A stretch of 64,000 nucleotides of DNA, taken from Loxodes magnus (lineage: Eukaryota; Ciliophora; Karyorelictea; Loxodida; Loxodidae). The translations under genes and the position numbers were made by a program. Within the stretch, counting starts at the first letter, position 1; the number at the start of each line of letters is the position of its first letter. Positions 13,171 to 64,000 of this stretch are shown here, piece after piece. The notes below the pieces were generated by a model. It was not told the origin of the DNA, did no database searches, and was given only the letters and a program-made list of their open reading frames with translations. The stretch is taken from positions 1-64,000 of the forward strand of contig CAMPDV010001973.1 of the NCBI GenBank assembly GCA_946699065.1. The letters are read 5' to 3'.

Positions 13171-15834
13171 TAATCTTGAGTAATCTAAAAATAGTTAAAA
13201 CTTTAATTTTATTTAATCTTGAGTAATCTAAAAATAGTTAAAACTTTAATTTTATTTAATCTTGAGTAATCTAAAAATAGTTAAAACTTAAATTTTATTT
13301 AATCTTGAGTAATCTAAAAATAGTTAAAACTTTAATTTTATTTAATCTTGAGTAATCTAAAAATAGTTAAAACTTAAATTTATTTAATCTTGAGTAATCT
13401 AAAAATAGTTAAAATTCATTTTTATTTAATCTTGAGTAATCTAAAAATAGTTAAAACTTTAATTTTATTTAATCTTGAGTAATCTAAAAATAGTTAAAAC
13501 TTTAATTTATTTAATCTTGAGTAATCTAAAAATAGTTAAAACTTTAATTTTATTTAATCTTGAGTAATCTAAAAATAGTTAAAACTTTATTTTATTTAAT
13601 CTTGAGTAATCTAAAAATAGTTAAAACTTAATTTTATTTAATCTTGAGTAATCTAAAAATAGTTAAAACTTAATTTTATTTAATCTTGAGTAATCTAAAA
13701 ATAGTTAAAACTTTAATTTATTTAATCTTGAGTAATCTAAAAATAGTTAAAACTTTAATTTTATTTAATCTTGAGTAATCTAAAAATAGTTAAAACTTAA
13801 ATTTTATTTAATCTTGAGTAATCTAAAAATAGTTAAAACTTTAATTTTATTTAATCTTGAGTAATCTAAAAATAGTTAAAACTTAAATTTATTTAATCTT
13901 GAGTAATCTAAAAATAGTTAAAACTTAAATTTATTTAATCTTGAGTAATCTAAAAATAGTTAAAACTTAAATTTTATTTAATCTTGAGTAATCTAAAAAT
14001 AGTTAAAACTTAAATTTATTTAATCTTGAGTAATCTAAAAATAGTTAAAACTTAAATTTTATTTAATCTTGAGTAATCTAAAAATAGTTAAAACTTTAAT
14101 TTTATTTAATCTTGAGTAATCTAAAAATAGTTAAAACTTTAATTTTATTTAATCTTGAGTAATCTAAAAATAGTTAAAACTTTAACTTATTTAGTCTTGA
14201 GTAATCTAAAAATAGTTAAAAATTAATTTTATTTAATCTTGAGTAATCTAAAAATAGTTAAAACTTAATTTTATTTAATCTTGAGTAATCTAAAAATAGT
14301 TAAAACTTTAATTTATTTAATCTTGAGTAATCTAAAAATAGTTAAAACTTTAATTTTATTTAATCTTGAGTAATCTAAAAATAGTTAAAACTTAAATTTT
14401 ATTTAATCTTGAGTAATCTAAAAATAGTTAAAACTTTAATTTTATTTAATCTTGAGTAATCTAAAAATAGTTAAAACTTAATTTTATTTAATCTTGAGTA
14501 ATCTAAAAATAGTTAAAACTTTAACTTATTTAGTCTCGAGTAATCTAAAAATAGTTAAAACTTAATTTTATTTAATCTTGAGTAATCTAAAAATAGTTAA
14601 AACTTAATTTTATTTAATCTTGAGTAATCTAAAAATAGTTAAAACTTTAATTTTATTTAATCTTGAGTAATCTAAAAATAGTTAAAACTTAATTTTATTT
14701 AATCTTGAGTAATCTAAAAATAGTTAAAACTTTAATTTTATTTAATCTTGAGTAATCTAAAAATAGTTAAAACTTAAATTTTATTTAATCTTGAGTAATC
14801 TAAAAATAGTTAAAACTTTAATTTTATTTAATCTCGAGTAATCTAAAAATAGTTAAAACTTAATTTTATTTAATCTTGAGTAATCTAAAAATAGTTAAAA
14901 CTTAAATTTTATTTAATCTTGAGTAATCTAAAAATAGTTAAAACTTTAATTTTATTTAATCTTGAGTAATCTAAAAATAGTTAAAACTTAATTTTATTTA
15001 ATCTTGAGTAATCTAAAAATAGTTAAAACTTTAATTTTATTTAATCTTGAGTAATCTAAAAATAGTTAAAACTTAATTTTATTTAATCTTGAGTAATCTA
15101 AAAATAGTTAAAACTTTAATTTTATTTAATCTTGAGTAATCTAAAAATAGTTAAAACTTAAATTTTATTTAATCTTGAGTAATCTAAAAATAGTTAAAAC
15201 TTTAATTTTATTTAATCTTGAGTAATCTAAAAATAGTTAAAACTTTAATTTTATTTAATCTTGAGTAATCTAAAAATAGTTAAAACTTTAATTTTATTTA
15301 ATCTTGAGTAATCTAAAAATAGTTAAAACTTAATTTTATTTAATCTTGAGTAATCTAAAAATAGTTAAAATTCATTTTTATTTAATCTTGAGTAATCTAA
15401 AAATAGTTAAAACTTTAACTTATTTAGTCTCGAGTAATCTAAAAATAGTTAAAACTTTAATTTTATTTAATCTTGAGTAATCTAAAAATAGTTAAAACTT
15501 TAATTTTATTTAATCTTGAGTAATCTAAAAATAGTTAAAACTTTAATTTTATTTAATCTTGAGTAATCTAAAAATAGTTAAAACTTTAATTTTATTTAAT
15601 CTTGAGTAATCTAAAAATAGTTAAAACTTTAATTTTATTTAATCTTGAGTAATCTAAAAATAGTTAAAACTTAATTTTATTTAATCTTGAGTAATCTAAA
15701 AATAGTTAAAACTTAATTTTATTTAATCTTGAGTAATCTAAAAATAGTTAAAACTTAATTTTATTTAATCTTGAGTAATCTAAAAATAGTTAAAACTTTA
15801 ATTTTATTTAATCTTGAGTAATCTAAAAATAGTT

Positions 15835-16050
15835 AAAATCTAAAAATAGTTAAAACTTAATTTTATTTAATCTTGAGTAATCTAAAAATAGTTAAAACTT
15901 AATTTTATTTAATCTTGAGTAATCTAAAAATAGTTAAAACTTAATTTTATTTAATCTTGAGTTCTAAAAATTTAAAATCTTGAGTAATCTAAAAATAGTT
16001 AAAACTTTAATTTTATTTAAAAATCTAAAAATTTAAAATTTTATTTAATC
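15835..16050 (+). repeat. Scrambled patch in X copy 1
   Basis: Partial units are joined out of register: AAAATCTAAAAATAG at about 15,836, GAGTTCTAAAAATTTAAAATC at 15,959-15,979, and TTTAAAAATCTAAAAATTT at about 16,016. The corresponding parts of copy 2 (about 52.0-52.2 kb) and copy 3 (about 55.14-55.27 kb) both carry intact units, including an AACTT/CTCGAG unit, so the damage is private to this copy. Confidence 0.8.
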
Positions 16051-17820
16051 TTGAGTAATCTAAAAATAGTTAAAACTTAATTTTATTTAATCTTGAGTAA
16101 TCTAAAAATAGTTAAAACTTAAAATTTATTTAATCTTGAGTAATCTAAAAATAGTTAAAACTTTAATTTTATTTAATCTTGAGTAATCTAAAAATAGTTA
16201 AAACTTAAATTTATTTAATCTTGAGTAATCTAAAAATAGTTAAAACTTTAATTTTATTTAATCTTGAGTAATCTAAAAATAGTTAAAACTTAAAATTTAT
16301 TTAATCTTGAGTAATCTAAAAATAGTTAAAACTTAATTTTATTTAATCTTGAGTAATCTAAAAATAGTTAAAACTTTAATTTTATTTAATCTTGAGTAAT
16401 CTAAAAATAGTTAAAACTTAATTTTATTTAATCTTGAGTAATCTAAAAATAGTTAAAACTTAATTTTATTTAATCTTGAGTAATCTAAAAATAGTTAAAA
16501 CTTTAATTTTATTTAATCTTGAGTAATCTAAAAATAGTTAAAACTTAATTTTATTTAATCTTGAGTAATCTAAAAATAGTTAAAACTTTAATTTTATTTA
16601 ATCTTGAGTAATCTAAAAATAGTTAAAACTTTATTTTATTTAATCTTGAGTAATCTAAAAATAGTTAAAACTTTAATTTTATTTAATCTTGAGTAATCTA
16701 AAAATAGTTAAAACTTTAATTTTATTTAATCTTGAGTAATCTAAAAATAGTTAAAACTTAAATTTTATTTAATCTTGAGTAATCTAAAAATAGTTAAAAC
16801 TTAATTTTATTTAATCTTGAGTAATCTAAAAATAGTTAAAACTTTAATTTTATTTAATCTTGAGTAATCTAAAAATAGTTAAAACTTAAATTTTATTTAA
16901 TCTTGAGTAATCTAAAAATAGTTAAAACTTTAATTTTATTTAATCTTGAGTAATCTAAAAATAGTTAAAACTTAAATTTATTTAATCTTGAGTAATCTAA
17001 AAATAGTTAAAACTTAAATTTTATTTAATCTCGAGTAATCTAAAAATAGTTAAAACTTTAATTTTATTTAATCTTGAGTAATCTAAAAATAGTTAAAACT
17101 TAATTTTATTTAATCTTGAGTAATCTAAAAATAGTTAAAATTCATTTTTATTTAATCTTGAGTAATCTAAAAATAGTTAAAACTTAATTTTATTTAATCT
17201 TGAGTAATCTAAAAATAGTTAAAACTTTAATTTTATTTAATCTTGAGTAATCTAAAAATAGTTAAAACTTTAACTTATTTAGTCTCGAGTAATCTAAAAA
17301 TAGTTAAAACTTTAATTTTATTTAATCTTGAGTAATCTAAAAATAGTTAAAACTTAATTTTATTTAATCTTGAGTAATCTAAAAATAGTTAAAACTTTAA
17401 TTTTATTTAATCTTGAGTAATCTAAAAATAGTTAAAACTTTATTTTATTTAATCTTGAGTAATCTAAAAATAGTTAAAACTTTAATTTTATTTAATCTTG
17501 AGTAATCTAAAAATAGTTAAAACTTTAACTTATTTAGTCTCGAGTAATCTAAAAATAGTTAAAACTTAAATTTTATTTAATCTTGAGTAATCTAAAAATA
17601 GTTAAAACTTTAATTTTATTTAATCTTGAGTAATCTAAAAATAGTTAAAACTTTAATTTTATTTAATCTTGAGTAATCTAAAAATAGTTAAAACTTAATT
17701 TTATTTAATCTTGAGTAATCTAAAAATAGTTAAAACTTTAATTTTATTTAATCTTGAGTAATCTAAAAATAGTTAAAACTTAAATTTATTTAATCTTGAG
17801 TAATCTAAAAATAGTTAAAA

Positions 17821-18720
17821 TTCATTTTTATTTAATCTTGAGTAATCTAAAAATAGTTAAAACTTTAATTTTATTTAATCTTGAGTAATCTAAAAATAGT
17901 TAAAACTTAAATTTTATTTAATCTTGAGTAATCTAAAAATAGTTAAAACTTAATTTTATTTAATCTTGAGTAATCTAAAAATAGTTAAAACTTTAATTTT
18001 ATTTAATCTTGAGTAATCTAAAAATAGTTAAAACTTAAATTTTATTTAATCTTGAGTAATCTAAAAATAGTTAAAATTCATTTTTATTTAATCTTGAGTA
18101 ATCTAAAAATAGTTAAAACTTTAATTTTATTTAATCTTGAGTAATCTAAAAATAGTTAAAACTTAAATTTATTTAATCTTGAGTAATCTAAAAATAGTTA
18201 AAATTCATTTTTATTTAATCTTGAGTAATCTAAAAATAGTTAAAACTTTAATTTTATTTAATCTTGAGTAATCTAAAAATAGTTAAAACTTAAATTTTAT
18301 TTAATCTTGAGTAATCTAAAAATAGTTAAAACTTAATTTTATTTAATCTTGAGTAATCTAAAAATAGTTAAAACTTTAATTTTATTTAATCTTGAGTAAT
18401 CTAAAAATAGTTAAAACTTAAATTTTATTTAATCTTGAGTAATCTAAAAATAGTTAAAATTCATTTTTATTTAATCTTGAGTAATCTAAAAATAGTTAAA
18501 ACTTTAATTTTATTTAATCTTGAGTAATCTAAAAATAGTTAAAACTTAAATTTATTTAATCTTGAGTAATCTAAAAATAGTTAAAATTCATTTTTATTTA
18601 ATCTTGAGTAATCTAAAAATAGTTAAAACTTTAATTTTATTTAATCTTGAGTAATCTAAAAATAGTTAAAACTTAAATTTATTTAATCTTGAGTAATCTA
18701 AAAATAGTTAAAATTCATTT
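17821..18720 (+). repeat. Nine-unit (383-bp) repeat with three-unit (127-bp) sub-repeat
   Basis: TTCAT linkers lie at 17,821, 18,077, 18,204, 18,460, 18,587 and 18,714, giving intervals of 256, 127, 256, 127 and 127 bp (6, 3, 6, 3, 3 units). The six-unit part is TTCAT, CTTTAA, CTTAAATTTT, CTTAA, CTTTAA, CTTAAATTTT. The three-unit part is TTCAT, CTTTAA, CTTAAATTTA. The nine-unit block is duplicated and the three-unit block repeated once more. A related three-unit spacing recurs in block C (57,309 to 57,436 and 57,628 to 57,756). Confidence 0.88.
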
Positions 18721-21700
18721 TTATTTAATCTTGAGTAATCTAAAAATAGTTAAAACTTTAATTTTATTTAATCTTGAGTAATCTAAAAATAGTTAAAACT
18801 TTAATTTTATTTAATCTTGAGTAATCTAAAAATAGTTAAAACTTAATTTTATTTAATCTTGAGTAATCTAAAAATAGTTAAAATTCATTTTTATTTAATC
18901 TTGAGTAATCTAAAAATAGTTAAAACTTAATTTTATTTAATCTTGAGTAATCTAAAAATAGTTAAAACTTTAATTTTATTTAATCTTGAGTAATCTAAAA
19001 ATAGTTAAAACTTAATTTTATTTAATCTTGAGTAATCTAAAAATAGTTAAAACTTTATTTTATTTAATCTTGAGTAATCTAAAAATAGTTAAAACTTAAA
19101 TTTTATTTAATCTCGAGTAATCAAAAATAGTTAAAACTTTAATTTTATTTAATCTCGAGTAATCTAAAAATAGTTAAAACTTTAATTTTATTTAATCTTG
19201 AGTAATCTAAAAATAGTTAAAACTTAATTTTATTTAATCTTGAGTAATCTAAAAATAGTTAAAACTTTAATTTTATTTAATCTTGAGTAATCTAAAAATA
19301 GTTAAAACTTTAATTTTATTTAATCTTGAGTAATCTAAAAATAGTTAAAACTTTAATTTATTTAATCTTGAGTAATCTAAAAATAGTTAAAACTTTAATT
19401 TTATTTAATCTTGAGTAATCTAAAAATAGTTAAAACTTAAATTTATTTAATCTTGAGTAATCTAAAAATAGTTAAAATTCATTTTTATTTAATCTTGAGT
19501 AATCTAAAAATAGTTAAAACTTAATTTTATTTAATCTTGAGTAATCTAAAAATAGTTAAAACTTTAACTTATTTAGTCTCGAGTAATCTAAAAATAGTTA
19601 AAACTTTAATTTTATTTAATCTTGAGTAATCTAAAAATAGTTAAAATTCATTTTTATTTAATCTTGAGTAATCTAAAAAAAGTTAAAACTTTAATTTTAT
19701 TTAATCTTGAGTAATCTAAAAATAGTTAAAACTTAAATTTTATTTAATCTTGAGTAATCTAAAAATAGTTAAAATTCATTTTTATTTAATCTTGAGTAAT
19801 CTAAAAATAGTTAAAACTTTAATTTTATTTAATCTTGAGTAATCTAAAAATAGTTAAAACTTAAAATTTATTTAATCTTGAGTAATCTAAAAATAGTTAA
19901 AACTTTAATTTTATTTAATCTTGAGTAATCTAAAAATAGTTAAAATTCATTTTTATTTAATCTTGAGTAATCTAAAAATAGTTAAAACTTTAATTTTATT
20001 TAATCTTGAGTAATCTAAAAATAGTTAAAACTTTAATTTTATTTAATCTTGAGTAATCTAAAAATAGTTATCTAAAAATAGTTAAAATTCATTTTTATTT
20101 AATCTTGAGTAATCTAAAAATAGTTAAAACTTAATTTTATTTAATCTTGAGTAATCTAAAAATAGTTAAAACTTAATTTTATTTAATCTTGAGTAATCTA
20201 AAAATAGTTAAAACTTTAATTTTATTTAATCTTGAGTAATCTAAAAATAGTTAAAACTTTAATTTTATTTAATCTTGAGTAATCTAAAAATAGTTAAAAC
20301 TTAATTTTATTTAATCTTGAGTAATCTAAAAATAGTTAAAACTTTAATTTTATTTAATCTTGAGTAATCTAAAAATAGTTAAAACTTTAATTTTATTTAA
20401 AAACTTAATTTTATTTAATCTTGAGTAATCTAAAAATAGTTAAAACTTTAATTTTATTTAATCTTGAGTAATCTAAAAATAGTTAAAACTTTATTTTATT
20501 TAATCTTGAGTAATCTAAAAATAGTTAAAATTCATTTTTATTTAATCTTGAGTAATCTAAAAATAGTTAAAACTTTATTTTATTTAATCTTGAGTAATCT
20601 AAAAATAGTTAAAACTTTAATTTTATTTAATCTTGAGTAATCTAAAAATAGTTAAAACTTAAATTTATTTAATCTTGAGTAATCTAAAAATAGTTAAAAT
20701 TCATTTTTATTTAATCTTGAGTAATCTAAAAATAGTTAAAACTTTAATTTTATTTAATCTTGAGTAATCTAAAAATAGTTAAAACTTTAATTTTATTTAA
20801 TCTTGAGTAATCTAAAAATAGTTAAAACTTTAATTTTATTTAATCTTGAGTAATCTAAAAATAGTTAAAATTCATTTTTATTTAATCTTGAGTAATCTAA
20901 AAATAGTTAAAACTTTAATTTTATTTAATCTTGAGTAATCTAAAAATAGTTAAAACTTAATTTTATTTAATCTTGAGTAATCTAAAAATAGTTAAAACTT
21001 TATTTTATTTAATCTTGAGTAATCTAAAAATAGTTAAAACTTAATTTTATTTAATCTTGAGTAATCTAAAAATAGTTAAAACTTTAACTTATTTAGTCTC
21101 GAGTAATCTAAAAATAGTTAAAACTTAATTTTATTTAATCTTGAGTAATCTAAAAATAGTTAAAACTTAATTTTATTTAATCTTGAGTAATCTAAAAATA
21201 GTTAAAACTTAATTTTATTTAATCTTGAGTAATCTAAAAATAGTTAAAACTTTAACTTATTTAGTCTCGAGTAATCTAAAAATAGTTAAAACTTAATTTT
21301 ATTTAATCTTGAGTAATCTAAAAATAGTTAAAACTTTAATTTTATTTAATCTTGAGTAATCTAAAAATAGTTAAAACTTAATTTTATTTAATCTTGAGTA
21401 ATCTAAAAATAGTTAAAACTTTAATTTTATTTAATCTTGAGTAATCTAAAAATAGTTAAAACTTAAAATTTATTTAATCTTGAGTAATCTAAAAATAGTT
21501 AAAACTTAATTTTATTTAATCTTGAGTAATCTAAAAATAGTTAAAACTTAAATTTATTTAATCTTGAGTAATCTAAAAATAGTTAAAACTTAAATTTTAT
21601 TTAATCTTGAGTAATCTAAAAATAGTTAAAACTTAATTTTATTTAATCTTGAGTAATCTAAAAATAGTTAAAACTTTAATTTTATTTAATCTTGAGTAAT

Positions 21701-23628
21701 CTAAAAATAGTTAAAACTTAAATTTATTTAATCTTGAGTAATCTAAAAATAGTTAAAACTTAAATTTTATTTAATCTTGAGTAATCTAAAAATAGTTAAA
21801 ACTTTAATTTTATTTAATCTTGAGTAATCTAAAAATAGTTAAAACTTAAATTTATTTAATCTCGAGTAATCTAAAAATAGTTAAAACTTAATTTTATTTA
21901 ATCTTGAGTAATCTAAAAATAGTTAAAACTTAATTTTATTTAATCTTGAGTAATCTAAAAATAGTTAAAACTTTAATTTTATTTAATCTTGAGTAATCTA
22001 AAAATAGTTAAAACTTTAATTTTATTTAATCTTGAGTAATCTAAAAATAGTTAAAACTTTAATTTTATTTAATCTTGAGTAATCTAAAAATAGTTAAAAC
22101 TTAATTTTATTTAATCTTGAGTAATCTAAAAATAGTTAAAATTCATTTTTATTTAATCTTGAGTAATCTAAAAATAGTTAAAACTTTAACTTATTTAGTC
22201 TCGAGTAATCTAAAAATAGTTAAAACTTTAATTTTATTTAATCTTGAGTAATCTAAAAATAGTTAAAACTTTAACTTATTTAGTCTCGAGTAATCTAAAA
22301 ATAGTTAAAACTTTAATTTTATTTAATCTTGAGTAATCTAAAAATAGTTAAAACTTAAATTTATTTAATCTTGAGTAATCTAAAAATAGTTAAAACTTTA
22401 ATTTTATTTAATCTTGAGTAATCTAAAAATAGTTAAAACTTTAATTTTATTTAATCTTGAGTAATCTAAAAATAGTTAAAACTTAATTTTATTTAATCTT
22501 GAGTAATCTAAAAATAGTTAAAACTTAATTTTATTTAATCTTGAGTAATCTAAAAATAGTTAAAACTTAAATTTTATTTAATCTTGAGTAATCTAAAAAT
22601 ATTTAAAACTTTAATTTTATTTAATCTTGAGCAATCTAAAAATAGTTAAAACTTAATTTTATTTAATCTTGAGTAATCTAAAAATAGTTAAAACTTAAAT
22701 TTTATTTAATCTCGAGTAATCTAAAAATAGTTAAAACTTAAATTTTATTTAATCTTGAGTAATCTAAAAATAGTTAAAACTTAATTTTATTTAATCTTGA
22801 GTAATCTAAAAATAGTTAAAACTTAAATTTATTTAATCTTGAGTAATCTAAAAATAGTTAAAATTCATTTTTATTTAATCTTGAGTAATCTAAAAATAGT
22901 TAAAACTTTAATTTTATTTAATCTTGAGTAATCTAAAAATAGTTAAAACTTTATTTTATTTAATCTTGAGTAATCTAAAAATAGTTAAAACTTTAATTTT
23001 ATTTAATCTTGAGTAATCTAAAAATAGTTAAAACTTTAATTTTATTTAATTTTGAGTAATCTAAAAATAGTTAAAACTTAATTTTATTTAATCTTGAGTA
23101 ATCTAAAAATAGTTAAAACTTTAATTTTATTTAATCTTGAGTAATCTAAAAATAGTTAAAACTTTATTTTATTTAATCTTGAGTAATCTAAAAATAGTTA
23201 AAACTTTAATTTTATTTAATCTTGAGTAATCTAAAAATAGTTAAAACTTTAATTTTATTTAATCTTGAGTAATCTAAAAATAGTTAAAACTTAATTTTAT
23301 TTAATCTTGAGTAATCTAAAAATAGTTAAAACTTAAATTTATTTAATCTTGAGTAATCTAAAAATAGTTAAAACTTTAATTTTATTTAATCTCGAGTAAT
23401 CTAAAAATAGTTAAAACTTTAATTTTATTTAATCTTGAGTAATCTAAAAATAGTTAAAACTTAATTTTATTTAATCTTGAGTAATCTAAAAATAGTTAAA
23501 ACTTTAACTTATTTAGTCTTGAGTAATCTAAAAATAGTTAAAACTTAATTTTATTTAATCTTGAGTAATCTAAAAATAGTTAAAACTTTAATTTTATTTA
23601 ATCTTGAGTAATCTAAAAATAGTTAAAA

Positions 23629-23969
23629 CTTTAACTTATTTAGTCTCGAGTAATCTAAAAATAGTTAAAACTTTAATTTTATTTAATCTTGAGTAATCTA
23701 AAAATAGTTAAAACTTAATTTTATTTAATCTTGAGTAATCTAAAAATAGTTAAAACTTTAATTTTATTTAATCTTGAGTAATCTAAAAATAGTTAAAACT
23801 TTAACTTATTTAGTCTCGAGTAATCTAAAAATAGTTAAAACTTTAATTTTATTTAATCTTGAGTAATCTAAAAATAGTTAAAACTTAATTTTATTTAATC
23901 TTGAGTAATCTAAAAATAGTTAAAACTTTATTTTATTTAATCTTGAGTAATCTAAAAATAGTTAAAACT
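23629..23969 (+). repeat. Tandem tetramer with CTCGAG unit (170 bp)
   Basis: The series GTCTCGAG unit, CTTTAATTTT, CTTAATTTT, CTTTAATTTT starts at 23,629 and again at 23,799, exactly 170 bp apart. The second copy changes its last linker to CTTTATTTTATTTA. A GTCTTGAG unit precedes it by three units, at 23,501. The same trio, with the same spacing, appears inverted at 44,935/44,806/44,636 and direct at 62,519/62,641/62,811, which makes it a good anchor for aligning the three copies of X. Confidence 0.9.
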
Positions 23970-37760: not shown

Positions 37761-37764
37761 TTAG

Positions 37765-48969: not shown

Positions 48970-49015
48970 TCAAGATAAATAAAATTAAAATTTTTGAACT
49001 CGAGTTTTAAGTTTT
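48970..49015 (-). repeat. Single broken unit
   Basis: CTCAAGATAAATAAAATT is followed by AAAATTTTTGAACTCGAG and TTTTAAG before the regular core resumes. A one-unit rearrangement inside an otherwise clean stretch. Confidence 0.7.
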
Positions 49016-49514
49016 AACTATTTTTAGATTACTCAAGATTAAATAAAATTAAGTTTTAACTATTTTTAGATTACTCAAGATTAAATAAAATTAAAGTTTT
49101 AACTATTTTTAGATTACTCAAGATTAAATAAAATTAAAGTTTTAACTATTTTTAGATTACTCAAGATTAAATAAAATTAAGTTTTAACTATTTTTAGATT
49201 ACTCAAGATTAAATAAAATTAAATTTTAACTATTTTTAGATTACTCAAGATTAAATAAAATTAAAGTTTTAACTATTTTTAGATTACTCAAGATTAAATA
49301 AAATTAAAGTTTTAACTATTTTTAGATTACTCAAGATTAAATAAAATTAAAGTTTTAACTATTTTTAGATTACTCAAGATTAAATAAAAATGAAGTTTTA
49401 ACTATTTTTAGATTACTCAAGATTAAATAAATTTAAGTTTTAACTATTTTTAGATTACTCAAGATTAAATAAAATTAAAGTTTTAACTATTTTTAGATTA
49501 CTCAAGATTAAATA

Positions 49515-49550
49515 AAAATGATAAACTAAATTACTCAAGATTAAAGTTTT
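49515..49550 (-). repeat. Single broken unit
   Basis: AAATGATAAACTAAATTACTC replaces a TTCAT linker and core, and ATTAAAG follows directly. The neighbouring units are regular. Confidence 0.7.
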
Positions 49551-51654: not shown

Positions 51655-51695
51655 ATTACTCAAGAGTTTTAACTATTTTTAGATTACTAAATAAA
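51655..51695 (-). repeat. Single broken unit
   Basis: ACTCAAGAGTTTTAACTA lacks the whole linker, and GATTACTAAATAAAATT lacks the CAAGATT of the next unit. Two deletions of about 10 bp lie within 40 bp. Confidence 0.7.
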
Positions 51696-53159
51696 ATTAA
51701 AGTTTTAACTATTTTTAGATTACTCAAGATTAAATAAAATTAAGTTTTAACTATTTTTAGATTACTCAAGATTAAATAAAATTGAATTTTAACTATTTTT
51801 AGATTACTCAAGATTAAATAAATTAAAGTTTTAACTATTTTTAGATTACTCAAGATTAAATAAAATTAAAGTTTTAACTATTTTTAGATTACTCAAGATT
51901 AAATAAAATTAAAGTTTTAACTATTTTTAGATTACTCAAGATTAAATAAATTTAAAGTTTTAACTATTTTTAGATTACTCAAGATTAAATAAAATTAAAG
52001 TTTTAACTATTTTTAGATTACTCAAGATTAAATAAATTTAAGTTTTAACTATTTTTAGATTACTCAAGATTAAATAAAATTAAAGTTTTAACTATTTTTA
52101 GATTACTCGAGATTAAATAAAGTTAAAGTTTTAACTATTTTTAGATTACTCAAGATTAAATAAAATTAAGTTTTAACTATTTTTAGATTACTCAAGATTA
52201 AATAAAATTAAAGTTTTAACTATTTTTAGATTACTCAAGATTAAATAAAATTTAAGTTTTAACTATTTTTAGATTACTCAAGATTAAATAAAATTAAGTT
52301 TTAACTATTTTTAGATTACTCAAGATTAAATAAAATTAAAGTTTTAACTATTTTTAGATTACTCAAGATTAAATAAAATTAAGTTTTAACTATTTTTAGA
52401 TTACTCAAGATTAAATAAAATTAAGTTTTAACTATTTTTAGATTACTCAAGATTAAATAAAATTAAGTTTTAACTATTTTTAGATTACTCAAGATTAAAT
52501 AAAATTAAAGTTTTAACTATTTTTAGATTACTCAAGATTAAATAAAATTAAAGTTTTAACTATTTTTAGATTACTCAAGATTAAATAAAATTAAAGTTTT
52601 AACTATTTTTAGATTACTCAAGATTAAATAAAATTAAAGTTTTAACTATTTTTAGATTACTCAAGATTAAATAAAATTAAAGTTTTAACTATTTTTAGAT
52701 TACTCGAGACTAAATAAGTTAAAGTTTTAACTATTTTTAGATTACTCAAGATTAAATAAAAATGAATTTTAACTATTTTTAGATTACTCAAGATTAAATA
52801 AAATTAAGTTTAACTATTTTTAGATTACTCAAGATTAAATAAAATTAAGTTTTAACTATTTTTAGATTACTCAAGATTAAATAAAATTAAAGTTTTAACT
52901 ATTTTTAGATTACTCAAGATTAAATAAAATTAAAGTTTTAACTATTTTTAGATTACTCAAGATTAATAAAATTTAAGTTTTAACTATTTTTAGATTACTC
53001 AAGATTAAATAAAATTAAAGTTTTAACCTATTTTTAGATTACTCAAGATTAAATAAAATTAAGTTTTAACTATTTTTAGATTACTCAAGATTAAATAAAA
53101 TTAAAGTTTTAACTATTTTTAGATTACTCAAGATTAAATAAAATTAAGTTTTAAACTAT

Positions 53160-54141
53160 TTTTAGATTACTCAAGATTAAATAAAATTAAAGTTTTAACT
53201 ATTTTTAGATTACTCAAGATTAAATAAAATTTAAGTTTTAACTATTTTTAGATTACTCAAGATTAAATAAAATTAAGTTTTAACTATTTTTAGATTACTC
53301 GAGATTAAATAAAATTAAAGTTTTAACTATTTTTAGATTACTCAAGATTAAATAAAATTTAAGTTTTAACTATTTTTAGATTACTCAAGATTAAATAAAA
53401 TTAAAGTTTTAACTATTTTTAGATTACTCAAGATTAAATAAAATTAAGTTTTAACTATTTTTAGATTACTCAAGATTAAATAAAATTAAAGTTTTAACTA
53501 TTTTTAGATTACTCAAGATTAAATAAAATTAAGTTTTAACTATTTTTAGATTACTCAAGATTAAATAAAATTAAGTTTTAACTATTTTTAGATTACTCGA
53601 GACTAAATAAGTTAAAGTTTTAACTATTTTTAGATTACTCAAGATTAATTTAATTAATCTTGAGTAATCTAAAAATAGTTAAAACTTTAACTTATTTAGT
53701 CTCGAGTAATCTAAAAATAGTTAAAACTTAATTTTATTTAATCTTGAGTAATCTAAAAATAGTTAAAACTTAATTTTATTTAATCTTGAGTAATCTAAAA
53801 ATAGTTAAAACTTTAATTTTATTTAATCTTGAGTAATCTAAAAATAGTTAAAACTTAATTTTATTTAATCTTGAGTAATCTAAAAATAGTTAAAACTTTA
53901 ATTTTATTTAATCTTGAGTAATCTAAAAATAGTTAAAACTTAAATTTTATTTAATCTTGAGTAATCTAAAAATAGTTAAAACTTTAATTTTATTTAATCT
54001 CGAGTAATCTAAAAATAGTTAAAACTTAATTTTATTTAATCTTGAGTAATCTAAAAATAGTTAAAACTTAAATTTTATTTAATCTTGAGTAATCTAAAAA
54101 TAGTTAAAACTTTAATTTTATTTAATCTTGAGTAATCTAAA
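53160..54141. repeat. Orientation switch 2: near-perfect palindrome, centre 53,651
   Basis: The centre reads CTCAAGATTAATT, then T, then AATTAATCTTGAG. I found no mismatch for about 490 bp on each side. The first differences are single-base length changes: GTTTAAAAC in block B near 53,155 and AAAAAATAG in block C near 54,181. Beyond that, the unit order keeps mirroring to at least 52,510 and 54,750, and more loosely for about 10 kb. The arms meet inside a linker, so the switch needed no foreign DNA. A cruciform in DNA or a hairpin in a transcript is expected from such symmetry. Confidence 0.93.
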
Positions 54142-57100
54142 AATAGTTAAAACTTAATTTTATTTAATCTTGAGTAATCTAAAAAATAGTTAAAACTTTA
54201 ATTTTATTTAATCTTGAGTAATCTAAAAATAGTTAAAACTTAATTTTATTTAATCTTGAGTAATCTAAAAATAGTTAAAACTTTAATTTTATTTAATCTT
54301 GAGTAATCTAAAAATAGTTAAAACTTAAATTTTATTTAATCTTGAGTAATCTAAAAATAGTTAAAACTTTAATTTTATTTAATCTTGAGTAATCTAAAAA
54401 TAGTTAAAACTTTAATTTTATTTAATCTTGAGTAATCTAAAAATAGTTAAAACTTTAATTTTATTTAATCTTGAGTAATCTAAAAATAGTTAAAACTTAA
54501 TTTTATTTAATCTTGAGTAATCTAAAAATAGTTAAAATTCATTTTTATTTAATCTTGAGTAATCTAAAAATAGTTAAAACTTTTAACTTATTTAGTCTCT
54601 GAGTAATCTAAAAATAGTTAAAACTTTAATTTTATTTAATCTTGAGTAATCTAAAAATAGTTAAAACTTTAATTTTATTTAATCTTGAGTAATCTAAAAA
54701 TAGTTAAAACTTTAATTTTATTTAATCTTGAGTAATCTAAAAATAGTTAAAACTTTAATTTTATTTAATCTTGAGTAATCTAAAAATAGTTAAAACTTAA
54801 TTTTATTTTAATCTTGAGTAATCTAAAAATAGTTAAAACTTAATTTTAATTTAATCTTGAGTAATCTAAAAATAGTTAAAACTTAATTTTATTTAATCTT
54901 GAGTAATCTAAAAATAGTTAAAACTTAATTTTATTTAATCTTGAGTAATCTAAAAATAGTTAAAACTTTAATTTTATTTAATCTTGAGTAATCTAAAAAT
55001 AGTTAAAACTTAATTTTATTTAATCTTGAGTAATCTAAAAATAGTTAAAACTTAAATTTTATTTAATCTTGAGTAATCTAAAAATAGTTAAAACTTTAAT
55101 TTTATTTAATCTTGAGTAATCTAAAAATAGTTAAAACTTAATTTTATTTAATCTTGAGTAATCTAAAAATAGTTAAAACTTTAACTTATTTAGTCTCGAG
55201 TAATCTAAAAATAGTTAAAACTTTAATTTTATTTAATCTTGAGTAATCTAAAAATAGTTAAAACTTAAATTTATTTAATCTTGAGTAATCTAAAAAATAG
55301 TTAAAACTTTAATTTTATTTAATCTTGAGTAATCTAAAAATAGTTAAAACTTAAAATTTATTTAATCTTGAGTAATCTAAAAATAGTTAAAACTTAATTT
55401 ATTTAATCTTGAGTAATCTAAAAATAGTTAAAACTTAAATTTATTTAATCTTGAGTAATCTAAAAATAGTTAAAACTTTAATTTTATTTAATCTTGAGTA
55501 ATCTAAAAATAGTTAAAACTTAAAATTTATTTAATCTTGAGTAATCTAAAAATAGTTAAAACTTAATTTTATTTAATCTTGAGTAATCTAAAAATAGTTA
55601 AACTTTAATTTTATTTTAATCTTGAGTAATCTAAAAATAGTTAAAACTTAATTTTATTTAATCTTGAGTAATCTAAAAATAGTTAAAACTTAATTTTATT
55701 TAATCTTGAGTAATCTAAAAATAGTTAAAACTTTAATTTTATTTAATCTTGAGTAATCTAAAAATAGTTAAAACTTATTTTATTTAATCTTGAGTAATCT
55801 AAAAATAGTTAAAACTTTAATTTTATTTAATCTTGAGTAATCTAAAAATAGTTAAAACTTTATTTTATTTAATCTTGAGTAATCTAAAAATAGTTAAAAC
55901 TTTAATTTTATTTAATCTTGAGTAATCTAAAAATAGTTAAAACTTTAATTTTATTTAATCTTGAGTAATCTAAAAATAGTTAAAACTTAAATTTTATTTA
56001 ATCTTGAGTAATCTAAAAATAGTTAAAACTTAATTTTATTTAATCTTGAGTAATCTAAAAATAGTTAAAACTTTAATTTATTTAATCTTGAGTAATCTAA
56101 AAATAGTTAAAACTTAAATTTTATTTAATCTTGAGTAATCTAAAAATAGTTAAAACTTTAATTTTATTTAATCTTGAGTAATCTAAAAATAGTTAAAACT
56201 TAAATTTATTTAATCTTGAGTAATCTAAAAATAGTTAAAACTTAAATTTTATTTAATCTCGAGTAATCTAAAAATAGTTAAAACTTTAATTTTATTTAAT
56301 CTTGAGTAATCTAAAAATAGTTAAAACTTAATTTTATTTAATCTTGAGTAATCTAAAAATAGTTAAAATTCATTTTTATTTAATCTTGAGTAATCTAAAA
56401 ATAGTTAAAATCTTAATTTTATTTAATCTTGAGTAATCTAAAAATAGTTAAAACTTTAATTTTATTTAATCTTGAGTAATCTAAAAATAGTTAAAACTTT
56501 AACTTATTTAGTCTCGAGTAATCTAAAAATAGTTAAAACTTTAATTTTATTTAATCTTGAGTAATCTAAAAATAGTTAAAACTTAATTTTATTTAATCTC
56601 GAGTAATCTAAAAATAGTTAAAACTTTAATTTTATTTAATCTTGAGTAATCTAAAAATAGTTAAAACTTAATTTTATTTAATCTTGAGTAATCTAAAAAT
56701 AGTTAAAACTTTAATTTTATTTAATCTTGAGTAATCTAAAAATAGTTAAAACTTTAATTTTATTTAATCTCGAGTAATCTAAAAATAGTTAAAACTTAAA
56801 TTTTATTTAATCTTGAGTAATCTAAAAATAGTTAAAACTTCATTTTTATTTAATCTTGAGTAATCTAAAAATAGTTAAAACTTTAATTTTATTTAATCTT
56901 GAGTAATCTAAAAATAGTTAAAACTTTAATTTTATTTAATCTTGAGTAATCTAAAAATAGTTAAAACTTTAATTTTATTTAATCTTGAGTAATCTAAAAA
57001 TAGTTAAAACTTAATTTTATTTAATCTTGAGTAATCTAAAAATAGTTAAAACTTAATTTTATTTAATCTTGAGTAATCTAAAAATAGTTAAAACTTTAAT

Positions 57101-57519
57101 TTTATTTAATCTTGAGTAATCTAAAAATAGTTAAAACTTAAATTTTATTTAATCTTGAGTAATCTAAAAATAGTTAAAACTTAATTTTATTTAATCTTGA
57201 GTAATCTAAAAATAGTTAAAACTTTAATTTTATTTAATCTTGAGTAATCTAAAAATAGTTTAAAACTTAAATTTTATTTAATCTTGAGTAATCTAAAAAT
57301 AGTTAAAATTCATTTTTATTTAATCTTGAGTAATCTAAAAATAGTTAAAACTTTAATTTTATTTAATCTTGAGTAATCTAAAAATAGTTAAAACTTAAAT
57401 TTATTTAATCTTGAGTAATCTAAAAATAGTTAAAATTCATTTTTATTTAATCTTGAGTAATCTAAAAATAGTTAAAACTTTAATTTTATTTAATCTTGAG
57501 TAATCTAAAAATAGTTAAA

Positions 57520-57615
57520 ACTTAAAATTTAATTTAGTAATTAATCTCGAGTAATCTAAAAATAGTTAAAACTTTAATTTTATTTAATTTAGTAATTATA
57601 GTTCTCTTGAGTAAT
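57520..57615 (+). repeat. Scrambled patch in X copy 3
   Basis: AAAATTTAATTTAGTAATTAATC appears near 57,524 and AATTTAGTAATTATAGTTCTC near 57,587. Both use a TTTAGTAATTA joint seen nowhere else in block C. TTCAT units on both sides keep their three-unit spacing. Confidence 0.7.
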
Positions 57616-58699
57616 CTAAAAATAGTTAAAATTCATTTTTATTTAATCTTGAGTAATCTAAAAATAGTTAAAACTTTAATTTTATTTAATCTTGAGTAAT
57701 CTAAAAATAGTTAAAACTTAAATTTATTTAATCTTGAGTAATCTAAAAATAGTTAAAATTCATTTTTATTTAATCTTGAGTAATCTAAAAATAGTTAAAA
57801 CTTTAATTTTATTTAATCTTGAGTAATCTAAAAATAGTTAAAACTTAAATTTTATTTAATCTCGAGTAATCTAAAAATAGTTAAAACTTCATTTTTATTT
57901 AATCTTGAGTAATCTAAAAATAGTTAAAACTTTAATTTTATTTAATCTTGAGTAATCTAAAAATAGTTAAAACTTTAATTTTATTTAATCTTGAGTAATC
58001 TAAAAATAGTTAAAACTTAATTTTATTTAATCTTGAGTAATCTAAAAATAGTTAAAATTCATTTTTATTTAATCTTGAGTAATCTAAAAATAGTTAAAAC
58101 TTTAATTTTATTTAATCTTGAGTAATCTAAAAATAGTTAAAACTTTAATTTTATTTAATCTTGAGTAATCTAAAAATAGTTAAAACTTCATTTTTATTTA
58201 ATCTTGAGTAATCTAAAAATAGTTAAAACTTAATTTTATTTAATCTTGAGTAATCTAAAAATAGTTTAAAACTTAAATTTTATTTAATCTCGAGTAATCT
58301 AAAAATAGTTAAAACTTTAATTTTATTTAATCTCGAGTAATCTAAAAATAGTTAAAATTCATTTTTATTTAATCTTGAGTAATCTAAAAATAGTTAAAAC
58401 TTAATTTTATTTAATCTTGAGTAATCTAAAAATAGTTAAAACTTTAATTTTATTTAATCTTGAGTAATCTAAAAATAGTTAAAACTTTAATTTTATTTAA
58501 TCTCGAGTAATCTAAAAATAGTTAAAATTCATTTTTATTTAATCTTGAGTAATCTAAAAATAGTTAAAACTTTAATTTTATTTAATCTTGAGTAATCTAA
58601 AAATAGTTAAAACTTAATTTTATTTAATCTTGAGTAATCTAAAAATAGTTAAAATTCATTTTTATTTAATCTTGAGTAATCTAAAAATAGTTAAAACTT

Positions 58700-60745
58700 A
58701 ATTTTATTTAATCTTTTTATTTAAAATCTCTGAGTAATCTAAAAATAGTTAAAACTTTAATTTTATTTAATCTTGAGTAATCTAAAAATAGTTAAAATTC
58801 ATTTTTATTTAATCTTGAGTAATCTAAAAATAGTTAAAACTTTAATTTTATTTAATCTTGAGTAATCTAAAAATAGTTAAAACTTAAATTTTATTTAATC
58901 TTGAGTAATCTAAAAATAGTTAAAACTTTATTTTTATTTAATCTTGAGTAATCTAAAAATAGTTAAAACTTTAATTTTATTTAATCTTGAGTAATCTAAA
59001 AATAGTTAAAACTTAAATTTTATTTAATCTTGAGTAATCTAAAAATAGTTAAAACTTTAATTTTATTTAATCTTGAGTAATCTAAAAATAGTTAAAACTT
59101 CATTTTATTTAATCTTGAGTAATCTAAAAATAGTTAAAACTTTAATTTTATTTAATCTTGAGTAATCTAAAAATAGTTAAAACTTTAATTTTATTTAATC
59201 TTGAGTAATCTAAAAATAGTTAAAACTTAATTTTATTTAATCTTGAGTAATCTAAAAATAGTTAAAACTTTAATTTTATTTAATCTTGAGTAATCTAAAA
59301 ATAGTTAAAACTTTATTTTATTTAATCTTGAGTAATCTAAAAATAGTTAAAACTTTAATTTTATTTAATCTTGAGTAATCTAAAAATAGTTAAAGTAATC
59401 TAAAAATAGTTTTCATTTTTATTTAATCTTGAGTAATCTAAAAATAGTTAAAACTTTAATTTTATTTAATCTTGAGTAATCTAAAAATAGTTAAAACTTA
59501 AATTTATTTAATCTTGAGTAATCTAAAAATAGTTAAAACTTATTTTTATTTAATCTTGAGTAATCTAAAAATAGTTAAAACTTTAATTTTATTTAATCTT
59601 GAAATCTAAAAATAGTTTTAATTTTATTTAATCTTGAGTAATCTAAAAATAGTTTAAAACTTTAATTTTATTTAATCTTGAGTAATCTAAAAATAGTTAA
59701 AACTTTAATTTTATTTAATCTTGAGTAATCTAAAAATAGTTAAAACTTCATTTTTATTTAATCTTGAGTAATCTAAAAATAGTTAAAACTTTAATTTTAT
59801 TTAATCTTGAGTAATCTAAAAATAGTTAAAACTTAATTTTATTTAATCTTGAGTAATCTAAAAATAGTTAAAACTTTAATTTTATTTAATCTTGAGTAAT
59901 CTAAAAATAGTTAAAACTTTAATTTTATTTAATCTTGAGTAATCTAAAAATAGTTAAAACTTTAATTTTATTTAATCTTGAGTAATCTAAAAATAGTTAA
60001 AACTTTAATTTTATTTAATCTTGAGTAATCTAAAAATAGTTAAAACTTAATTTTATTTAATCTTGAGTAATCTAAAAATAGTTAAAACTTTAATTTTATT
60101 TAATCTTGAGTAATCTAAAAATAGTTAAAATTCTTTTTATTTAATCTTGAGTAATCTAAAAATAGTTAAAACTTTAATTTTATTTAATCTTGAGTAATCT
60201 AAAATAGTTAAAACTTTAATTTTATTTAATCTTGAGTAATCTAAAAATAGTTAAAACTTTAATTTTATTTAATCTTGAGTAATCTAAAAATAGTTAAAAC
60301 TTTATTTTATTTAATCTTGAGTAATCTAAAAATAGTTAAAATTCATTTTTATTTAATCTTGAAATCTAAAAATAGTTAAAAAATTTTATTTAATCTTGAG
60401 TAATCTAAAAATAGTTAAAACTTAAATTTATTTAAAAATCTAAAAATAGTTAAAATTCATTTTTATTTAATCTTGAGTAATCTAAAAATAGTTAAAACTT
60501 AATTTTATTTAATCTTGAGTAATCTAAAAATAGTTAAAACTTTAATTTTATTTAATCTCGAAATCTTAAAACTTAATTTTATTTAATCTTGAGTAATCTA
60601 AAAATAGTTAAAACTTAATTTTATTTAATCTTGAGTAATCTAAAAATAGTTAAAACTTTAATTTTATTTAATCTTGAGTAATCTAAAAATAGTTAAAACT
60701 TAAATTTATTTAAAAATCTAAAAATAGTTAAAAATTTTTATTTAA
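58700..60745 (+). repeat. Zone of scattered broken units in block C
   Basis: Breaks occur near 58,711 (ATCTTTTTATTTAAAATC), 59,393 (GTTAAAGTAATCTAAAAATAG), 59,601 (CTTGAAATCTAAAAATAG), 60,359 (the same CTTGAAATC joint), 60,433 (ATTTAAAAATCTAAAAATAG), 60,558 (CTCGAAATCTTAAAAC) and 60,710 (ATTTAAAAATC). Most delete GAGTAATC or ATCTTGAGTA, so the same two joints recur. Regular units lie between. Confidence 0.75.
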
Positions 60746-62518
60746 TCTTGAGTAATCTAAAAATAGTTTAAAACTTAAATTTTATTTAATCTTGAGTAAT
60801 CTAAAAATAGTTAAAACTTTAATTTTATTTAATCTCGAGTAATCTAAAAATAGTTAAAATTCATTTTTATTTAATCTTGAGTAATCTAAAAATAGTTAAA
60901 ACTTTAATTTTATTTAATCTTGAGTAATCTAAAAATAGTTAAAACTTAATTTTATTTAATCTTGAGTAATCTAAAAATAGTTAAAACTTTAATTTTATTT
61001 AATCTCGAGTAATCTAAAAATAGTTAAAATTCATTTTTATTTAATCTTGAGTAATCTAAAAATAGTTAAAACTTTAATTTTATTTAATCTTGAGTAATCT
61101 AAAAATAGTTAAAACTTTAATTTTATTTAATCTCGAGTAATCTAAAAATAGTTAAAATTCATTTTTATTTAATCTTGAGTAATCTAAAAATAGTTAAAAC
61201 TTAAATTTATTTAATCTTGAGTAATCTAAAAATAGTTAAAACTTTAATTTTATTTAATCTTGAGTAATCTAAAAATAGTTAAAATTCTTTTTATTTAATC
61301 TTGAGTAATCTAAAAATAGTTAAAACTTAATTTTATTTAATCTTGAGTAATCTAAAAATAGTTAAAACTTAAATTTTATTTAATCTTGAGTAATCTAAAA
61401 ATAGTTAAAACTTTAATTTTATTTAATCTTGAGTAATCTAAAAATAGTTAAAACTTTAATTTTATTTAATCTTGAGTAATCTAAAAATAGTTAAAACTTT
61501 AATTTTATTTAATCTTGAGTAATCTAAAAATAGTTAAAACTTTATTTTATTTAATCTTGAGTAATCTAAAAATAGTTAAAATTCATTTTTATTTAATCTT
61601 GAGTAATCTAAAAATATTTAAAACTTTAATTTTATTTAATCTTGAGTAATCTAAAAATAGTTAAAACTTAATTTTATTTAATCTTGAGTAATCTAAAAAT
61701 AGTTAAAATTCATTTTTATTTAATCTTGAGTAATCTAAAAATAGTTAAAACTTAAATTTTATTTAATCTTGAGTAATCTAAAAATAGTTAAAACTTAAAT
61801 TTTATTTAATCTCGAGTAATCTAAAAATAGTTAAAACTTAAATTTATTTAATCTTGAGTAATCTAAAAATAGTTAAAATTCATTTTATTTAATCTTGAGT
61901 AATCTAAAAATAGTTAAAACTTTAATTTTATTTAATCTTGAGTAATCTAAAAATAGTTAAAACTTTAATTTTATTTAATCTTGAGTAATCTAAAAATAGT
62001 TAAAACTTTAATTTTATTTAATCTCGAGTAATCTAAAAATAGTTAAAACTTCAATTTTATTTAATTTTGAGTAATCTAAAAATAGTTAAAACTTAATTTT
62101 ATTTAATCTTGAGTAATCTAAAAATAGTTAAAACTTTAAATTTATTTAATCTTGAGTAATCTAAAAATAGTTAAAATTCATTTTATTTAATCTTGAGTAA
62201 TCTAAAAATAGTTAAAACTTAATTTTATTTAATCTTGAGTAATCTAAAAATAGTTAAAACTTAAATTTTATTTAATCTCGAGTAATCTAAAAATAGTTAA
62301 AACTTAATTTTATTTAATCTCGAGTAATCTAAAAATAGTTAAAACTTAAATTTATTTAATCTCGAGTAATCTAAAAATAGTTAAAACTTTAATTTTATTT
62401 AATCTTGAGTAATCTAAAAATAGTTAAAACTTTAATTTTATTTAATCTTGAGTAATCTAAAAATAGTTAAAACTTAATTTTATTTAATCTTGAGTAATCT
62501 AAAAATAGTTAAAACTTT

Positions 62519-62985
62519 AACTTATTTAGTCTTGAGTAATCTAAAAATAGTTAAAACTTAATTTTATTTAATCTTGAGTAATCTAAAATAGTTAAAACTT
62601 TAATTTTATTTAATCTTGAGTAATCTAAAAATAGTTAAAACTTTAACTTATTTAGTCTCGAGTAATCTAAAAATAGTTAAAACTTTAATTTTATTTAATC
62701 TTGAGTAATCTAAAAATAGTTAAAACTTAATTTTATTTAATCTTGAGTAATCTAAAAATAGTTAAAACTTTAATTTTATTTAATCTTGAGTAATCTAAAA
62801 ATAGTTAAAACTTTAACTTATTTTAGTCTCGAGTAATCTAAAAATAGTTAAAACTTTAATTTTATTTAATCTTGAGTAATCTAAAAATAGTTAAAACTTA
62901 ATTTTATTTAATCTTGAGTAATCTAAAAATAGTTAAAACTTTATTTTATTTAATCTTGAGTAATCTAAAAATAGTTAAAACTTTA
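62519..62985 (+). repeat. Third copy of the CTCGAG tetramer
   Basis: A GTCTTGAG unit at 62,519 is followed by GTCTCGAG units three units later (62,641) and four units after that (62,811; the last with one extra T, CTTATTTTAGTC). CTTTAA, CTTAA, CTTTATTTT and a run of CTTTAA units follow, as in blocks A and B, before the order diverges at about 63.15 kb. One intervening core is shortened to TCTAAAATAG near 62,583. Confidence 0.85.
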
Positions 62986-64000
62986 ATTTTATTTAATCTT
63001 GAGTAATCTAAAAATAGTTAAAACTTTAATTTTATTTAATCTTGAGTAATCTAAAAATAGTTAAAACTTTAATTTTATTTAATCTTGAGTAATCTAAAAA
63101 TAGTTAAAACTTTAATTTTATTAATCTTGAGTAATCTAAAAATAGTTAAAACTTAATTTTATTTAATCTTGAGTAATCTAAAAATAGTTAAAACTTAATT
63201 TTATTTAATCTTGAGTAATCTAAAAATAGTTAAAACTTTATTTTATTTAATCTTGAGTAATCTAAAAATAGTTAAAACTTAATTTTATTTAATCTTGAGT
63301 AATCTAAAAATAGTTAAAACTTTAATTTTATTTAATCTTGAGTAATCTAAAAATAGTTAAAACTTAAATTTATTTAATCTTGAGTAATCTAAAAATAGTT
63401 AAAACTTTAACTTATTTAGTCTCGAGTAATCTAAAAATAGTTAAAACTTTAATTTTATTTAATCTTGAGTAATCTAAAAATAGTTAAAACTTAATTTTAT
63501 TTAATCTTGAGTAATCTAAAAATAGTTAAAACTTTATTTTATTTAATCTTGAGTAATCTAAAAATAGTTAAAACTTTAATTTTATTTAATCTCGAGTAAT
63601 CTAAAAATAGTTAAAACTTAATTTTATTTAATCTCGAGTAATCTAAAAATAGTTAAAACTTTAATTTTATTTAATCTTGAGTAATCTAAAAATCTAGTTA
63701 AAACTTTAATTTTATTTAATCTTGAGTAATCTAAAAATAGTTAAAACTTTAATTTTATTTAATCTTGAGTAATCTAAAAATAGTTAAAACTTTAATTTTA
63801 TTTAATCTTGAGTAATCTAAAAATAGTTAAAACTTAATTTTATTTAATCTTGAGTAATCTAAAAATAGTTAAAACTTTAACTTATTTAGTCTCGAGTAAT
63901 CTAAAAATAGTTAAAACTTTAATTTTATTTAATCTTGAGTAATCTAAAAATAGTTAAAACTTTAATTTTATTTAATCTTGAGTAATCTAAAAATAGTTAA

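What the first reader, a model, noticed from the sequence alone, without database searches (positions are those of the whole stretch)
14490..64000. Satellite array arranged as X, inverted X, X (about 19.5 kb each)
Seen: the order of linker types and rare core variants is shared by block A from 14.5 kb, block B reversed, and block C. Rare markers pair as A/B/C: AATATTTAAAAC at 22,600/45,850/61,614; AATTTTGAG at 23,050/45,401/62,060; the GTCT trio at 23,501/44,935/62,519. GAGCAATCT (22,630/45,821) and AATCAAAAAAT (24,673/43,776) are shared by A and B only. Inference: either a real inverted triplication, of the kind produced by template switching or breakage-fusion events, or a fold-back read or assembly-graph artefact. 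Differences between copies are mostly single-base changes in run length, plus a few block changes.
Basis: seen in the sequence. Interest (0 to 1): 0.75.

Follow-up and report, generated by a model that had tools for sequence, protein, structure and literature searches.

The report
Fold-back read artefact in a satellite
A repeat array that seems to be copied forwards and backwards several times is best explained as an artefact of DNA strands that folded back on themselves before or during sequencing, not as a real rearrangement of the genome.

Summary
The mirrored order is real in the letters. The window is the first 64 kb of an 86,938-bp contig made wholly of a 43-bp AT-rich satellite, and the series continues beyond the window as a fourth, inverted block (X, X', X, X').

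A real inverted triplication is not supported. By size (705.7 Mb) and genetic code, the assembly is almost surely the published Loxodes magnus macronuclear one (PacBio HiFi, Falcon, Racon). Patterns found 74 fold junctions in 70 contigs, in four unrelated tandem repeats, one of them coding. In 72 of 74 the centre is 1-16 nt. Of 72 with known contig length, 66 lie 7-21.5 kb from a contig end and none closer. In seven other contigs of this satellite, mirrored arms differ next to the fold mainly by single-base indels. In this contig all three folds lie in or at the edge of noisy, read-long blocks.

Best reading: snap-back (hairpin-ended) molecules gave palindromic reads, which the assembler chained inside a 95%-self-similar satellite. 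I saw no raw reads. Native hairpin-ended DNA in the cell is not excluded; I give it about 5%.

The parts
1..14492 (+). Satellite array upstream of X (not part of the mirrored series)
   Evidence: Unit-order scores vs B, C, D are only 48, 106, 74; few singleton units, 6 of 340
14493..34006 (+). Block A (first X); its last 4-5 kb are scrambled
   Evidence: Unit alignment with inverted B and with C starts at 14,493; scrambled units at 30.0-33.3 kb
33985..34027 (.). Fold junction J1, head to head, 19-bp arms and 5-nt centre
34006..53651 (-). Block B (inverted X), 19,645 bp
53627..53675 (.). Fold junction J2, tail to tail, 24-bp arms and 1-nt centre
53651..64000 (+). Block C (second forward X), runs on to contig 72,496, where J3 and an inverted block D (to 86,938) follow
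   Evidence: J1 is 581 bp (in B) and J3 578 bp (in C) / 581 bp (in D) from the same marker units
43362..47736 (-). Clean block of B, practically identical to A 20.7-25.1 kb
   Evidence: 103 units in register, 3 kb with 0 substitutions and 1 indel, no singleton units in 44-48 kb; the B coordinates are converted by hand from the constant offset
30000..44000 (.). Noisy block spanning J1 (about one read long; 35-37 kb within it is clean)
   Evidence: Singleton and odd-length units
48000..64000 (.). Noisy block spanning J2 (about one read long)

Best explanation
Artefact. A small share of DNA molecules in the PacBio library had one end closed by a short snap-back: a 3' strand end folded at a tiny inverted repeat of the satellite unit and was extended (inferred). 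Such a molecule is read through its hairpin, so the consensus read is X followed by its reverse complement (inferred; the palindromes themselves are shown). In a satellite whose unrelated stretches are about 95-96% alike, an assembler set to accept 96% overlaps chains these palindromic reads with ordinary ones. That gives the X, X', X, X' contig, with clean and noisy read-long blocks (blocks shown, chaining inferred). No inverted triplication of the chromosome is needed.
For: (1) Generality: the 43-bp satellite has 12 junctions in 9 contigs, a second satellite 26 sites, a third 15, and a WD40-coding repeat 21 (WD40). Control patterns read backwards gave 0 in each of these searches. At 10 of 10 sampled sites of the other three repeats the orientation is reversed 1 kb to either side, and in 8 of 10 the two 60-base pieces mirror each other in register. 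(2) Mirrored unit order at the 9 junctions of the 43-bp satellite so tested, scores 134-839, against a median of 10 for 180 other arm pairs; the two further ones tested at base level are mirrored too. (3) The centre is 1-16 nt in 72 of 74 junctions. (4) Place: 48 of 52 junctions lie 7-21.5 kb from a contig end and 0 of 52 closer; random places would give 25.3 and 16.1. In the WD40 repeat, used as a fresh test, 18 of 20 and 0 of 20, against 8.4 and 5.5. (5) Arms differ near the fold mainly by single-base indels: 0 substitutions and 28 indels in 5 kb of C2323; 0 substitutions in the first 5 kb of C4804, 1 in the first 7 kb of C4633, 7 against 80 indels in 9.9 kb of C2492. Two between-contig controls carry 17-36 substitutions per kb. 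(6) In C1973 the three folds lie in, or for J3 at the edge of, noisy blocks of 14-16 kb between clean ones. (7) J1 and J3 are the same point of X to within 3 bp. (8) The Loxodes paper reports CCS reads, Falcon at 96% identity, and blames misassembly of low-complexity repeats for the MIC/MAC size difference (passages seen).
Against: No raw reads could be examined. A survey of fold-back reads, with only three PacBio samples, found virtually none in PacBio HiFi (PMC12870357, Results). The 6mA analysis in the Loxodes paper used native subreads, so whole-genome amplification, the best-known source of such palindromes, is unlikely. 0 of 6 non-satellite small contigs showed a mirrored start, though that test was weak. 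A real long palindrome with identical arms could also make a contig end about one read past the fold. Block A continues 14.5 kb past the point where B turns into C, so one single read cannot explain the whole contig. C4615 is mirrored only with a 4.3-kb offset from its junction. C656 and C709, two 200-kb contigs, reverse orientation but are not mirrored 1 kb from the fold. C4585 and C4804 carry substitution patches inside their arms, and C2326 loses the mirror between 1 and 1.5 kb. Near J1, and near J2 beyond the first kb, the arms of C1973 differ by as many substitutions as much of the array does.
Confidence: 0.85

Rival explanations
1. Real inverted amplification in the chromosome (breakage-fusion or replication template switching such as ODIRA), giving X, X', X, X'.
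For: J1 and J3 coincide, as if an X-X' unit had been duplicated. Junctions lie at short inverted repeats, as in ODIRA (PMC10766183).
Against: It would have to have happened privately in 70 contigs and in four unrelated repeats, including a coding one, in 66 of 72 cases 7-21.5 kb from a contig end. The centres are 0-16 nt, while yeast ODIRA junctions prefer interrupted repeats of 40-80 bp; my patterns could not see centres over about 30 nt. Arms next to the fold differ mainly by indels.
Confidence: 0.05
2. The fold-backs are native: Loxodes DNA carries hairpin-closed ends or snap-back palindromes in its tandem repeats in the living cell.
For: The sequenced DNA was probably unamplified (6mA called from subreads). 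No telomeres or telomerase were detected in Loxodes (PMC11441545, passage). Junctions look like hairpins.
Against: Both head-to-head and tail-to-tail folds occur in the same satellite, even in one contig, which a terminal array with one polarity would not give. Four unrelated repeats are involved. Fold points differ from contig to contig, though some repeats reuse the same place in the unit.
Confidence: 0.05
3. SMRTbell adapters missed in the raw read, so that successive passes of one 19.6-kb insert were left joined.
For: Blocks of 19.6, 18.8 and 14.4 kb with the same turning points. C4772 has blocks of 11.3, 15.6 and 13.7 kb.
Against: Adapter joints would be blunt mirrors with a zero-length centre or an adapter remnant; 72 of 74 junctions have a 1-16 nt centre. 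Block A runs 14.5 kb past the insert's supposed end.
Confidence: 0.05

Closest known systems
Fold-back artefact reads (Heinz, Meyerson and Li 2026, PMC12870357; abstract, Results and Discussion read)
   Same: Second half maps to the same place on the opposite strand; often no adapter between; attributed there to library preparation
   Different: That survey saw them in ONT and hardly in its three PacBio samples; here they appear in assembled contigs, in tandem repeats, with up to four passes
Whole-genome-amplification palindromes (Pacasus, Warris et al. 2018, PMC6218980; abstract and Background read)
   Same: Figure 1 legend describes repeated fold-back giving a fragment with four copies
   Different: The Loxodes DNA was probably not amplified
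ODIRA inverted triplications in yeast (Martin et al. 2024, PMC10766183; abstract and one Results section read)
   Same: Inverted copies with junctions at short inverted repeats
   Different: Inverted repeats of 40-80 bp with spacer at a selected locus; here 0-16 nt centres spread over unrelated repeats
Low-complexity tandem repeats of Loxodes magnus (Seah et al. 2024, PMC11441545; outline, passages and two sections read)
   Same: Very likely the same assembly (706 Mbp MAC)
   Different: The passages I saw name misassembly of repeats but not fold-backs; 'palindrom' and 'hairpin' and 'chimer' do not occur in the main text; the supplement was not seen

Membership tests
Fold-back read artefact | Mirror image of the same sequence about one point | tested here: met
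   43-bp satellite: 11 of 12 junctions tested, 11 mirrored, C4615 only with a 4.3-kb offset, J1 and J2 weak by this test alone but supported by the whole-block test. Other repeats: 8 of 10 sampled sites mirrored 1 kb out, C656 and C709 not
Fold-back read artefact | Arms alike apart from sequencing-type errors | tested here: met
   Indels outnumber substitutions near the fold in 7 of 7 other contigs tested (C4585 3 to 13 in 5 kb, C2326 0 to 2 in 1 kb), and in the first 6 kb around J3; in C1973 itself not met near J1, and near J2 only in the first kb
Fold-back read artefact | Supported by single symmetric reads only | not testable with these tools
   No raw reads; indirect support from distance to contig ends
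Missed SMRTbell adapter | Blunt mirror with zero-length centre or adapter remnant | tested here: not met
   Centre length 0 in 2 of 74, 1-16 nt in 72 of 74
Whole-genome-amplification palindrome | DNA was amplified before sequencing | tested here: inconclusive
   Library details are in a supplement I could not read; native subreads were used for 6mA
ODIRA / inverted triplication | Junctions at interrupted inverted repeats of 40-80 bp | tested here: inconclusive
   Centres found are 0-16 nt, but the search patterns allow at most 30 nt between anchors
ODIRA / inverted triplication | Three copies between unique flanks | tested here: not met
   At least four blocks and no stretch between satellite units longer than 113 bases in the 86,938-bp contig
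Satellite DNA array | Head-to-tail repeats of one unit | tested here: met
   43-bp period over 1-64,000, 1,502 copies

The most novel reading that the evidence does not exclude
Loxodes, a ciliate in which telomeres and telomerase were not found, carries naturally hairpin-closed DNA ends or snap-back palindromes inside its tandem repeats, and the palindromic reads record them.
Probability: 0.05. Interest if true: 0.85.

Novelty: not a real feature. Interest (0 to 1): 0.2.

Why it matters
It warns that the tandem-repeat contigs of this published assembly probably hold many false palindromes: 74 fold junctions by patterns that can catch only part of them. They should not be read as inverted amplifications, and they give a ready list of places to test whether the folds are made in the tube or in the cell.

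Tried and rejected
Base-level identity as proof of the mirror: rejected, because many registers of the array align at 94-96%. Chains of rare 64-mers: too noisy, replaced by unit-order alignment. A single polymerase read with missed adapters as the only cause: rejected because of block A's extra 14.5 kb and the non-blunt centres. Whole-genome amplification: thought of first, then set back because 6mA was called from native subreads. Non-satellite fold-backs: 0 of 6 contig starts had a reverse match in their own contig; the seventh piece, C5612, proved to be another tandem repeat with all listed copies on one strand; some pieces are dispersed repeats found on both strands of other, larger contigs (C902, C340, C280, C195); only 40 of 1,978 candidates were scored. 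In one search one further high pair (the two controls ctl1 and ctl2, 487) was left out of both groups, because these two stretches overlap by construction. Paper searches for a snap-back end-repair source and for palindromic HiFi reads gave no paper that I used beyond PMC10766183; a search for Loxodes with telomere or palindrome listed no Loxodes paper among its 8 rows.

Full report
What is there. The window is positions 1-64,000 of an 86,938-bp contig in a 705.7-Mb, 7,843-contig assembly. It is one tandem array with a 43-bp period, 1,502 copies, at 14.5% G+C (base counts). Orientation runs + to about 34,006, - to 53,651, + to 72,496, - to the contig end.

Is the mirrored order more than chance? 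I cut the array into units, scored identical rare units by rarity and aligned the orders. A vs inverted B scored 462, A/C 177, A/inverted D 317, B/C 221, B/D 344 and C/D 333. Three shuffles of B gave 24-35 and B in reversed order 37. The first 14 kb gave 48, 106 and 74 against B, C and D, so the array also has some ordinary direct similarity of its own. Base identity alone is useless here, since many registers align at 94-96%.

Agreement is patchy. A and B share a block of about 4.3 kb with practically no difference; C and D agree at about 99.6% for 6 kb around J3; B and C agree exactly for about 2 kb near J1/J3; elsewhere similarity falls towards the background of the satellite. Singleton units show why: 0-29, 44-48 and 64-72 kb are mostly clean, while 30-44, 48-64 and 72-87 kb are noisy. 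J1 and J2 lie in noisy blocks and J3 at the edge of one. The noise is out-of-register scrambling of the unit, which looks like failed consensus, not evolution. From one shared marker the distance to J1 is 581 bp in B, and to J3 578 bp in C and 581 bp in D, so J1 and J3 are one turning point of X, although the unit types next to it differ between B and C/D. The last 5-6 kb of A before J1 does not match B at unit level.

Which organism. The Loxodes magnus macronuclear assembly is reported as 706 Mbp, with 231 Mbp of low-complexity tandem repeats, assembled from CCS reads with Falcon at 96% identity and polished with Racon. The authors say that misassembly of such repeats likely explains the size difference between their two assemblies (PMC11441545, passages). 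Of 29 chaperonin matches in this genome, 29 have in-frame TAA or TAG and 7 have an in-frame TGA, which fits the ambiguous karyorelict code described there. The identification is an inference; the genome itself is unnamed.

Is it special to this locus? No. Patterns that catch a fold within a short gap found 7 + 5 folds of this satellite in 9 contigs, 23 + 3 sites of a second satellite (one search lists one site twice), 15 of a third, and 4 + 17 of a coding WD40 repeat. The sum is 74 sites in 70 contigs; control patterns gave none. In the 43-bp satellite 11 of the 12 folds were tested for mirrored arms and all 11 are mirrored: nine in unit order (134-839; median of 180 other pairs 10) and C2323 and C2326 at base level. 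Cautions: J1 and J2 alone (176 and 134) are not above the best other pairs within C1973 (323 between two copies of X, 218 with the first 10 kb), the best pair between other contigs scores 146, and C4615 is mirrored only with an offset of 4.3 kb. In the other three repeats most sites are known only by the short dyad. At 10 sampled sites the orientation is reversed 1 kb to either side in 10 of 10. The two 60-base pieces mirror each other in 8 of 10: in 7 the match beats every cross-contig match of the same repeat, in C1165 it ties with the best. In C656 and C709 it does not.

What the folds look like. 72 of 74 have a non-palindromic centre of 1-16 nt, 55 of 74 of 1-5 nt. A missed adapter would leave a blunt mirror, so this speaks for snap-back of a strand at a tiny inverted repeat. 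Mirrored arms near the fold differ mainly by single-base indels: C2323 has 0 substitutions and 28 indels in 5 kb; C4804 has no substitution in the first 5 kb, C4633 one in 7 kb, C4772 four (against 42 indels) in 7 kb, C4585 three (against 13) in 5 kb, and C2492 seven (against 80) in 9.9 kb. C4633 and C4772 lose the mirror abruptly at about 7-7.7 kb, C2326 between 1 and 1.5 kb, while C4585 and C4804 have substitution patches inside the arms. Unrelated stretches carry 17-36 substitutions per kb in two between-contig controls and 7-21 in a within-contig control.

Where the folds lie. For 72 sites the contig length is known (C4773 and C5107 were not looked up). 48 of 52 in the first set lie 7-21.5 kb from a contig end and none closer; random placement gives 25.3 and 16.1, and no simulation of 20,000 reached either value. 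The range was chosen after seeing these 52 and just includes C2817 (21.4 kb). J1 and J2 of this contig, C2323 and C2103 lie outside it. In the WD40 set, examined afterwards, 18 of 20 lie in the range (8.4 expected, no simulation reached it) and none closer (5.5 expected, P 0.0008); C89 and C1843 lie outside. Contig C2500 folds at 8,727 bp from both of its ends with reverse-complementary junctions, as if one palindromic read had been used at both ends. This means that beyond most folds the contig holds only about one read length of sequence, so the assembly offers no independent second arm there. It does not by itself tell a tube artefact from a native hairpin, because a true palindrome with identical arms could end a contig in the same way.

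Mechanism, shown and inferred. Shown: palindromes, hairpin-like centres, sequencing-type differences, read-length spacing, generality over four repeats. Inferred: snap-back priming at molecule ends during library preparation, reading through the hairpin, and chaining of such reads by 96% overlaps in a satellite whose unrelated stretches are about 95-96% alike. Against it: HiFi libraries surveyed elsewhere (three PacBio samples) show virtually no fold-backs (PMC12870357), and I found no fold-back in 6 non-satellite contig starts (weak test). The native alternative (hairpin-closed DNA in a ciliate whose telomeres have not been found) is kept as the novel case at about 5%. It is disfavoured by folds of both polarities in one satellite and by their spread over four repeats.

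Verdict. Observation confirmed; interpretation as a real inverted triplication not supported; fold-back artefact most likely.

Noticed in passing
Contig C1973 64,001-86,938 (L009-L011): Block C runs to 72,496, then a fourth, inverted block D of 14,442 bp follows to the contig end.
   Followed up: yes
C2500 (L065): Two folds at 8,727 bp from each contig end with reverse-complementary junction sequences, as if one palindromic read closed both ends.
   Followed up: partly
C656 (L122, L123) and C709 (L124, L125): Orientation of the second satellite reverses at the fold, but pieces 1 kb to either side do not mirror each other; these may be joins of different array stretches.
   Followed up: no
C1165 and C2087: Folds of the third satellite lie exactly 14,091 bp from the end in both contigs, with different junction sequences; may be chance.
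   Followed up: no
C4615 (L034, L035): The mirrored part begins 4.3 kb away from the orientation switch on one side only.
   Followed up: no
L059 (C7418), L058 (C7117): Coding tandem repeats of WD40 type, 333 aa translated without a stop from L059 under code 27, with 21 fold junctions of the family elsewhere.
   Followed up: partly
window 964-8,835 vs contig 66.9-72.4 kb: Weak direct higher-order similarity (score 106) between the array's start and the end of block C.
   Followed up: no
genome-wide chaperonin matches: 7 of 29 chaperonin matches hold an in-frame TGA besides many TAA/TAG, fitting an ambiguous stop/sense code.
   Followed up: no
C5612 (L053): Another tandem repeat of about 300 bp, listed copies on one strand over the first 6.4 kb.
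   Followed up: no
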